Shown here one piece after another: positions 21,621-22,372 of a stretch of DNA of 64,000 bases. Within the stretch, counting starts at the first letter, position 1; every line of letters begins with the position of its first letter. Below the pieces are notes generated by a model. The model saw nothing but the letters and a program-made list of their open reading frames with translations, searched no databases and was not told where the DNA came from. Made by a program: the position numbers and the translations under genes. The stretch is from Gemmatimonadota bacterium (GTDB lineage: Bacteria > Gemmatimonadota > Gemmatimonadetes > Longimicrobiales > Gaopeijiaceae), in the NCBI GenBank assembly GCA_022823365.1, contig JAJDXG010000045.1:156486-220485 (forward strand), given 5' to 3'.

Positions 21621-22205
21621 TCAGCCTGGTCTGCCCCAGGGCCGCACGAACGTCTCCGGCTCCACCCCCAGCCCGTCCGCCACCCGGGTGATGTAGTTGA
21701 AATACCCGATCACCTGGGTCGCGTCGTGGATCGCCCGGTCGTCGAAGCCATGGCTGCGCAACGCTTCCAGATCCTCCGCTCCCACTTCCGCCTGTCGCAG
21801 CGTGAGCTTCTCCGCATAGTCGCATAGCGCCCGGTCCGCCTCCGACAATCCCGCCTCGCGCCAGTCGCGGACGATGGCGTGCACGAAGGCATCGCGCTCG
21901 CCGTCGCTCTCGAACAGCTCCTCGATCTCTTCCCGGAGATCATGCGCGTGCGCCTGCTCTCAGTAGAAGCAGCCATTCACCTTGGAGGTGACCACGGCGA
22001 GCATCTCACGGCGCCAGCGGTTCAACGGCGAAGACCCGAACATGAGCGTGCGGTAGAACTGCATGGTGGTCTGCATGACCCGAGGGTTCAGGCTCATCAC
22101 CCGTACGATGTTCCAGATCCGGCCGGCCCGGTCCCGCGCCTCGCCGTACAGCCTGCGCAGGAGGCCGATGGCTTCGGATTCGGGTATCTCTCGTATGTGG
22201 GACAT
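21621..22205 (-). CDS. AhpD-like peroxidase-related selenoprotein (in-frame TGA read as selenocysteine)
   Basis: The full frame is 194 residues with one in-frame TGA at 21962-21960 (codon 82). Upstream sequence ends VVTSKVNGCFY; downstream sequence continues without a shift as EQAHAHDLREEIEELF and then typical AhpD/carboxymuconolactone-decarboxylase-fold helices (LSEADRALCDYAEKLT, DATQVIGYFNYITRVADGLGV). The TGA therefore replaces the second Cys of the redox motif NxCxYCxxxH, giving CFYU. CxxU forms of AhpD-like proteins are known from metagenomic selenoproteome surveys. A hairpin with a 6-bp perfect stem starts 18 bases after the TGA, in the range for a bacterial SECIS element. The ATG overlaps the hicB-like stop (TAATG). 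A stop or pseudogene is the alternative, but the frame and family similarity on both sides argue against it. Confidence 0.85.
21924..21941 (-). promoter_or_regulatory. SECIS-like hairpin for UGA recoding
   Basis: In the mRNA, GAUCUC (21941-21936) pairs perfectly with GAGAUC (21929-21924) around the 6-base loop CGGGAA. An adjacent U-G pair can extend the stem. The stem begins 18 bases, and the loop 24 bases, after the in-frame UGA, which is the distance seen for SelB-binding hairpins in bacteria. The GG in the loop is also typical. It encodes DLREEI in frame. Confidence 0.6.
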
Positions 22206-22372
22206 TACGGCCGGCAACCGTCTTCGAGCAGCATCGCAATGACTTCCCTCAGGTTTTCGGCAAGCTCGTCCAGGCTTCCGGCCTGTGAGTGCGCTCCCGG
22301 AAGTTCGGGAACATAGCCCACGAACAGGCCGGTCTCGCGGTCCTGCTCGACCACGGCGGTGAATCGTCTCAC
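22205..22372 (-). CDS. HicB-like small protein (no HicA partner)
   Basis: A 55-residue protein of the HicB/UPF0150 fold: VRRFTAVVEQDRETGLFVGY (residues 1-20) followed by VPELPGAHSQAGSLDELAENL, the partial RNase-H-like fold of HicB antitoxins. It lacks a C-terminal DNA-binding domain, and no hicA toxin gene lies on either side. The GTG start shares one base with the Omp85 gene stop (TAGTG), and its stop shares one base with the selenoprotein ATG (TAATG), so all three are translated as a coupled unit. The function may not be antitoxin activity. Confidence 0.78.
   Translation of the reverse strand: MRRFTAVVEQDRETGLFVGYVPELPGAHSQAGSLDELAENLREVIAMLLEDGCRP

What the first reader, a model, noticed from the sequence alone, without database searches (positions are those of the whole stretch)
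21621..22205. AhpD-like selenoprotein hidden as two short open frames
Seen: one in-frame TGA at 21962-21960 splits an otherwise continuous 194-codon gene. The TGA falls exactly where the second Cys of the AhpD redox motif is expected (NGCFY-TGA-EQAH), and the same frame continues with family-typical sequence. Known: CxxU AhpD-like selenoproteins have been described from marine metagenomes. Inference: this organism decodes UGA as selenocysteine here, giving a more reactive peroxidase. Ordinary annotation would report two unrelated fragments.
Basis: partly seen in the sequence, partly recalled or inferred. Interest (0 to 1): 0.88.

Follow-up and report, generated by a model that had tools for sequence, protein, structure and literature searches.

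The report
AhpD-like CxxU selenoprotein gene
The gene really does use an internal "stop" codon to insert the rare selenium amino acid selenocysteine into the active site of a predicted peroxide-handling redox enzyme; this is a new member of a selenoprotein family predicted since 2005, so it is sound but not surprising.

Summary
Window 22205-21621 (minus strand) is one 194-codon gene with a single in-frame TGA at 21962-21960, at the second Cys position of an AhpD CxxC motif (NGCFY-U-EQAH). The genome carries selA, selB, selD and a UCA tRNA-Sec, and at least three other TGA-containing selenoprotein-type genes. Of 80 relatives fetched from genome contigs, 79 have TGA at exactly this codon and one has TGC; they span at least eight phyla. 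In the GTDB family, TGA forms co-occur with selA (71 of 75, against 4 of 16 TGA-less forms; p = 9e-9). Both halves are under equal purifying selection. A hairpin at +21 to +38 fits the published bacterial SECIS model, is more stable than synonymous shuffles and shows compensatory changes. AlphaFold gives a confident AhpD fold across the TGA, and the five proton-relay residues are conserved.

The selenoprotein reading is supported. "More reactive peroxidase" is plausible but untested. CxxU AhpD-like selenoproteins were predicted in 2005, and this exact family (TIGR01926, CxxU) is in a 2026 review table, so this is a new member of a known kind. The one modestly new point is that the surrounding subfamily appears almost exclusively Sec-containing.

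The parts
21621..22205 (-). AhpD-like (TIGR01926) selenoprotein gene, 194 codons plus terminal TGA
   Evidence: TIGR01926 131 bits, cut-off 81.8; Pfam CMD 33.7 bits; pLDDT 96
21960..21962 (-). Sec codon TGA (residue 82), second position of the CxxU motif
   Evidence: TGA in 109 of 110 loci, TGC in L130; co-occurrence with selA
21924..21941 (-). Apical hairpin of the predicted bacterial SECIS: GAUCUC-CGGGAA-GAGAUC (6 bp, 6-nt loop, G at loop position 2, loop 24 nt after UGA)
   Evidence: model constraints from PMC13188914
21912..21959 (-). Larger region after UGA that can fold with an outer GAGCAG/CUGUUC stem in this genome; the outer stem is not conserved in relatives
21969..21971 (-). Cys79, resolving partner of the CxxU pair
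   Evidence: invariant
22005..22007 (-). Glu67, proton-relay residue (Glu36 of PA0269, Glu118 of M. tuberculosis AhpD)
   Evidence: invariant; PMC3141380
21948..21950 (-). His86, proton-relay residue (His55 of PA0269, His137 of M. tuberculosis AhpD)
   Evidence: (invariant)

Best explanation
This is a selenocysteine-containing AhpD-like redox enzyme. Shown by sequence: one gene interrupted by UGA, conserved SECIS-like hairpin, complete Sec machinery, Sec/Cys equivalence and the AhpD catalytic residues. Inferred: SelB carrying Sec-tRNA(UCA) binds the hairpin just after the UGA and inserts Sec at residue 82. The Sec selenolate, activated by the Glu67/Tyr81/His86 relay, attacks a peroxide or another oxidised substrate. 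It then forms a selenenylsulfide with Cys79, which a cellular thiol or lipoyl/thioredoxin-type donor reduces. My confidence that UGA is Sec is about 0.97; that the enzyme is a peroxidase or peroxidase-adaptor in vivo is about 0.6.
For: selA, selB, selD and tRNA-Sec in the same genome. Other TGA-containing selenoprotein-type genes in the genome: SelW-like CTAU, Prx-like UPWC and AhpC/TSA RGUT. TGA in 79 of 80 genome contigs relatives in at least eight phyla, Cys in the remaining one. TGA form linked to selA across 91 family genomes, Fisher p = 9e-9. Cys homologues (12 loci) have TGC or TGT at this codon and lack the conserved stem. Equal purifying selection on both sides. Hairpin at +18 to +39 is the most stable 22-nt window on average among 81 non-redundant genes (-8.6 against -3.1 kcal/mol mean over all windows), more stable than synonymous-codon shuffles (-5.1, Wilcoxon p = 5e-14), with compensatory C-G/U-A changes at two pairs. 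E67, C79, Y81, U82/C82 and H86 invariant in 40 relatives. AF2 model pLDDT 96; best PDB matches 2pfx, 2oyo and 6k40, with TM-scores of about 0.83-0.86.
Against: For this single sequence the fold is no better than shuffles (z = -0.6), and the published bSECIS constraints are lax: 63% of random positions in the window pass them. The alignment used was picked partly for pairing, so its 100% pairing is circular. No protein or RNA data exist. Four genomes with the TGA form lack a detected selA, but all are incomplete (63-89%). The substrate and electron donor are unknown. AF2 without an alignment gave a poor model.
Confidence: 0.95

Rival explanations
1. The TGA is a sequencing error or a nonsense mutation in a decaying gene.
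For: The window comes from a fragmented assembly (63 contigs). Broken copies do exist in relatives: G033 interrupted, G106 frameshifted.
Against: The same TGA occurs in 109 of 110 loci from independent assemblies in at least eight phyla. dN/dS downstream is about 0.09.
Confidence: 0.01
2. Two separate genes, or a functional truncated protein ending at Tyr81.
For: An ordinary ORF caller reports two ORFs. Some truncated product from termination at UGA is expected, as for any Sec gene.
Against: The downstream ORF's first possible start (GTG 21884) lies 25 codons after the TGA, and the intervening codons (EQAHAHDLREE...) are conserved and include the invariant His86. The fold and the TIGR01926 match run through the TGA.
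Confidence: 0.01
3. UGA is reassigned or read through without Sec (for example Trp).
For: None found.
Against: It is the only coding-on-both-sides TGA in 64 kb, and the gene's own terminator is TGA. The homologous residue is Cys, not Trp. The tRNA-Sec machinery is present.
Confidence: 0.01
4. It is a selenoprotein as described, but its main job is not peroxide reduction. It could instead be a reductive dehalogenase or general disulfide/selenenylsulfide reductase, as the AhpD fold is also used by the debrominase Bmp8 (PDB 6ohi/6ohj).
For: Bmp8 is a structural neighbour (Foldseek E 1e-5, TM 0.72-0.73). Deiodinase is a precedent for Sec in dehalogenation (general knowledge).
Against: Sequence identity to Bmp8 is only 16%, while peroxidase-related AhpD proteins are nearer in sequence and structure. 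The full AhpD proton relay is invariant. Relatives come from very diverse lineages. No halogen-metabolism genes were found among the immediate neighbours annotated.
Confidence: 0.06

Closest known systems
AhpD-like selenoprotein, TIGR01926, CxxU (Sargasso Sea and GOS families; Table 1 of PMC13188914)
   Same: Same NCBIfam subfamily, same CxxU motif, SECIS directly downstream of UGA
   Different: Here placed in a near-complete Gemmatimonadota-type genome with its sel genes; nearest relatives form an almost exclusively Sec-containing clade in the sample
NF041238 alkylhydroperoxidase-related (seleno)protein (CFYUT)
   Same: CFYU motif, shared C-terminal domain
   Different: 62 bits against a cut-off of 175; NF041238 is a longer protein (357 positions). 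Not a member
D. radiodurans AhpD (PDB 6k40) and D. geothermalis 2oyo, peroxidase-related proteins
   Same: Best solved relatives in sequence (E 5e-28 and 3e-27) and among the best in fold; same E-(11)-CxYCxxxH layout
   Different: Cys where the window has Sec
M. tuberculosis AhpD / PA0269
   Same: Proton-relay residues at the same spacing (E, C, H/Y, C, H)
   Different: Different chain topology in MtAhpD, low overall identity, Cys not Sec

Membership tests
Bacterial selenoprotein | In-frame UGA at a position occupied by Cys in homologues | tested here: met
   TGA against TGC/TGT at the same codon; PDB homologues have Cys
Bacterial selenoprotein | Genome encodes SelA, SelB, SelD and tRNA-Sec | tested here: met
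Bacterial selenoprotein | bSECIS stem-loop just downstream of UGA | tested here: met
   the lax model alone is weak evidence, the conservation is strong
Bacterial selenoprotein | Selenium physically present in the protein | not testable with these tools
   needs mass spectrometry or 75Se labelling
TIGR01926 peroxidase-related (AhpD-like) | Score above the curated cut-off | tested here: met
   131 bits against 81.8
TIGR01926 peroxidase-related (AhpD-like) | All-helical AhpD fold | tested here: met
   AF2 pLDDT 96; Foldseek 2pfx, 2oyo, 6k40 at TM about 0.83-0.86
AhpD mechanism | Proton-relay residues Glu, Cys, His/Tyr, Cys, His at fixed spacing | tested here: met
   E67, C79, Y81, U82, H86
AhpD mechanism | Peroxidase activity or reduction of AhpC | not testable with these tools
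   A protein with AhpC-TSA and 1-Cys-Prx C-terminal domains is encoded at C50:7304-7903, but no linkage to this gene was shown
NF041238 AhpD-related (seleno)protein | Score above the equivalog cut-off of 175 bits | tested here: not met
   62 bits

The most novel reading that the evidence does not exclude
The subfamily is effectively Sec-obligate across at least eight phyla and does chemistry that Cys cannot do well in this fold, such as reductive dehalogenation or reduction of a specific organic peroxide, rather than being a Sec upgrade of ordinary AhpD.
Probability: 0.08. Interest if true: 0.6.

Novelty: new member of a known kind. Interest (0 to 1): 0.3.

Why it matters
It confirms selenocysteine use in this lineage and corrects a gene that ordinary annotation would split in two. 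The sampled subfamily is almost entirely Sec (98 Sec rows on one side of a tree branch, 11 distant Cys rows on the other), so it would suit a test of why some families keep Sec and do not revert to Cys. The family itself is already listed in reviews.

Tried and rejected
Single-sequence RNA folding gave no significance (z = -0.6). The published bSECIS constraints as a stand-alone test were rejected as too lax (63% of random positions pass). The Rfam gathering scan of the whole window found nothing. AF2 without an alignment was poor and was replaced by an alignment of 40 sequences. A phage origin was checked: no match. The second tRNA-Sec hit (C8:417202) is a tRNA-Leu by ARAGORN. The upstream HicB-like ORF was considered as a conserved operon partner and dropped: it is not found in close orthologous loci.

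Full report
Observation. The minus-strand frame 22205-21621 reads MSHIREIPE...VNGCFY-TGA-EQAHAHDLREE...RPWGRPG-TGA. The internal TGA is at 21962-21960, as stated. Ordinary ORF calling splits the gene into 85 and 87 aa pieces. A codon-usage scan over the six frames of the window returned this as the only TGA with 50 open, coding-like codons on both sides.

Family. The read-through protein scores 131 bits against NCBIfam TIGR01926 (peroxidase-related enzyme; cut-off 81.8) and 33.7 bits against Pfam CMD. The nearest solved proteins by sequence are 6k40 (D. radiodurans AhpD) and 2oyo, which have Cys at the TGA position. An AlphaFold model from an alignment of 40 sequences has mean pLDDT 96 with no break at residue 82 and matches 2pfx, 2oyo and 6k40 (TM about 0.83-0.86). 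PMC3141380 describes the AhpD proton relay as Glu36, Cys48, Tyr50, Cys51 and His55 in PA0269, and Glu118, Cys130, His132, Cys133 and His137 in M. tuberculosis. The window has E67, C79, Y81, U82 and H86 at the same spacing, and all five columns are invariant in the alignment (read with TGA as C).

Machinery. The window's own assembly (98% complete) has selA, selB, selD and one tRNA-Sec with anticodon UCA. It also encodes a SelW-like protein with CTAU, a peroxiredoxin-like protein with UPWC and an AhpC/TSA protein with RGUT, each interrupted by TGA at what looks like the redox site. Sec decoding in this organism does not therefore rest on this gene alone.

Comparative evidence. Of 80 relatives from genome contigs, 79 have TGA and one (L130, Phycisphaerae) TGC at the aligned codon; with 30 further loci from the GTDB family the count is 109 of 110, though some loci are from the same genomes. 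Relatives carry names from Gemmatimonadota, Planctomycetota, Verrucomicrobiota, Chloroflexota, Actinomycetota, Acidobacteriota, Fidelibacterota and Myxococcota. The query was searched with C in place of U, so the search was not biased towards TGA. In the family, 71 of 75 genomes whose best match has a TGA also have selA, against 4 of 16 without (Fisher p = 9e-9; genomes are related, so the p-value is nominal). The four exceptions with TGA but no selA are incomplete assemblies, and three of the four TGA-less genomes with selA have only weak matches. Twelve Cys homologues fetched from the family have TGC or TGT at the codon. In a maximum-likelihood tree, Sec and Cys rows fall on opposite sides of one branch (97/67 support; long branches, so cautious). 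dN/dS among close orthologues is 0.074 before and 0.092 after the TGA (dN 0.025 and 0.031, dS 0.34 and 0.33).

SECIS. After the UGA the RNA forms GAUCUC-CGGGAA-GAGAUC (offset +21 to +38). The published bacterial model asks for a 3-9 nt loop, a 4-16 bp stem, a G in the first two loop positions, 16-37 nt between UGA and loop, and MFE of at most -7.5 kcal/mol (PMC13188914). The window meets all of these, as do 79 of 81 non-redundant relatives, and 81 of 81 have the G. Random positions in this GC-rich window also pass 63% of the time, so that test alone is weak, and single-sequence folding is not significant. Stronger tests: the +18 window has the lowest mean folding energy along 81 genes; real sequences beat synonymous-codon shuffles that keep the protein (p = 5e-14); two of six pairs show C-G to U-A compensation, 10 cells against 2.1 in shuffles (the sequences were chosen partly for pairing, so only the covariation is informative). 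A second clade (planctomycetes and allies) uses a register-shifted stem, often with a GGUCN loop, which as I recall resembles the E. coli fdhF loop.

Mechanism. Shown: gene structure, machinery, conservation, predicted fold and active-site layout. Inferred: SelB-dependent Sec insertion; selenolate at residue 82 attacks the oxidised substrate; Cys79 resolves it. Peroxide is the most likely substrate by family, but neither substrate nor reductant was tested. The AhpD fold also includes the debrominase Bmp8, so reductive dehalogenation is a low-probability alternative.

Novelty. CxxU AhpD-like selenoproteins were predicted in the Sargasso Sea data (27 sequences, PMC1088965), expanded in GOS (AhpD-like 1: 299; AhpD-like 2: 70; PMC2398784), and "AhpD-like protein, TIGR01926, CxxU" appears in Table 1 of PMC13188914. 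This gene is a well-supported new member. I could not check whether this exact locus is already annotated as Sec-containing in RefSeq.

Context. The gene lies behind an Omp85-family gene, convergent with an amidase gene and with a PEPCK gene beyond. Omp85 and PEPCK are kept in all eight closest relatives, and the amidase in four of them. A 55-codon HicB-like ORF between Omp85 and the selenoprotein gene is absent from the two relatives read at the junction and had no match in any of the 80 relatives' loci.

Noticed in passing
window 22205-22372 (-): A 55-aa HicB-like ORF (Pfam PF15919, 27 bits) lies exactly between the Omp85 gene and the selenoprotein gene with overlapping stop/start codons on both sides (TAGTG and TAATG). 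It is absent from orthologous loci of close relatives, where Omp85 and AhpD are separated by only a few bases; single copy in this genome.
   Followed up: partly
L154, L157, L160 (G000 C62:155420, C53:23175, C62:115787): Three more probable selenoprotein genes in the same genome: SelW-like (CTAU), peroxiredoxin-like (UPWC), AhpC/TSA-like (RGUT).
   Followed up: partly
L144, L145, L146 and similar hits: Many genomes of the family carry a second, about 45-50% identical paralogue group, also with TGA (three read: CFYU-INHHG or CYYU-IIHHG); this genome lacks it.
   Followed up: partly
L147 (G033) and L148 (G106): Copies of the selenoprotein gene that look broken: one interrupted by over 1 kb of other sequence, one apparently frameshifted near the Sec codon.
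   Followed up: no
L083, L101, L104 and other planctomycete/verrucomicrobial loci: The SECIS hairpin of this clade is shifted by one base and often has a GGUCN apical loop instead of CGGGNN/CGUGNN, as if the SECIS drifted in register while staying functional.
   Followed up: partly
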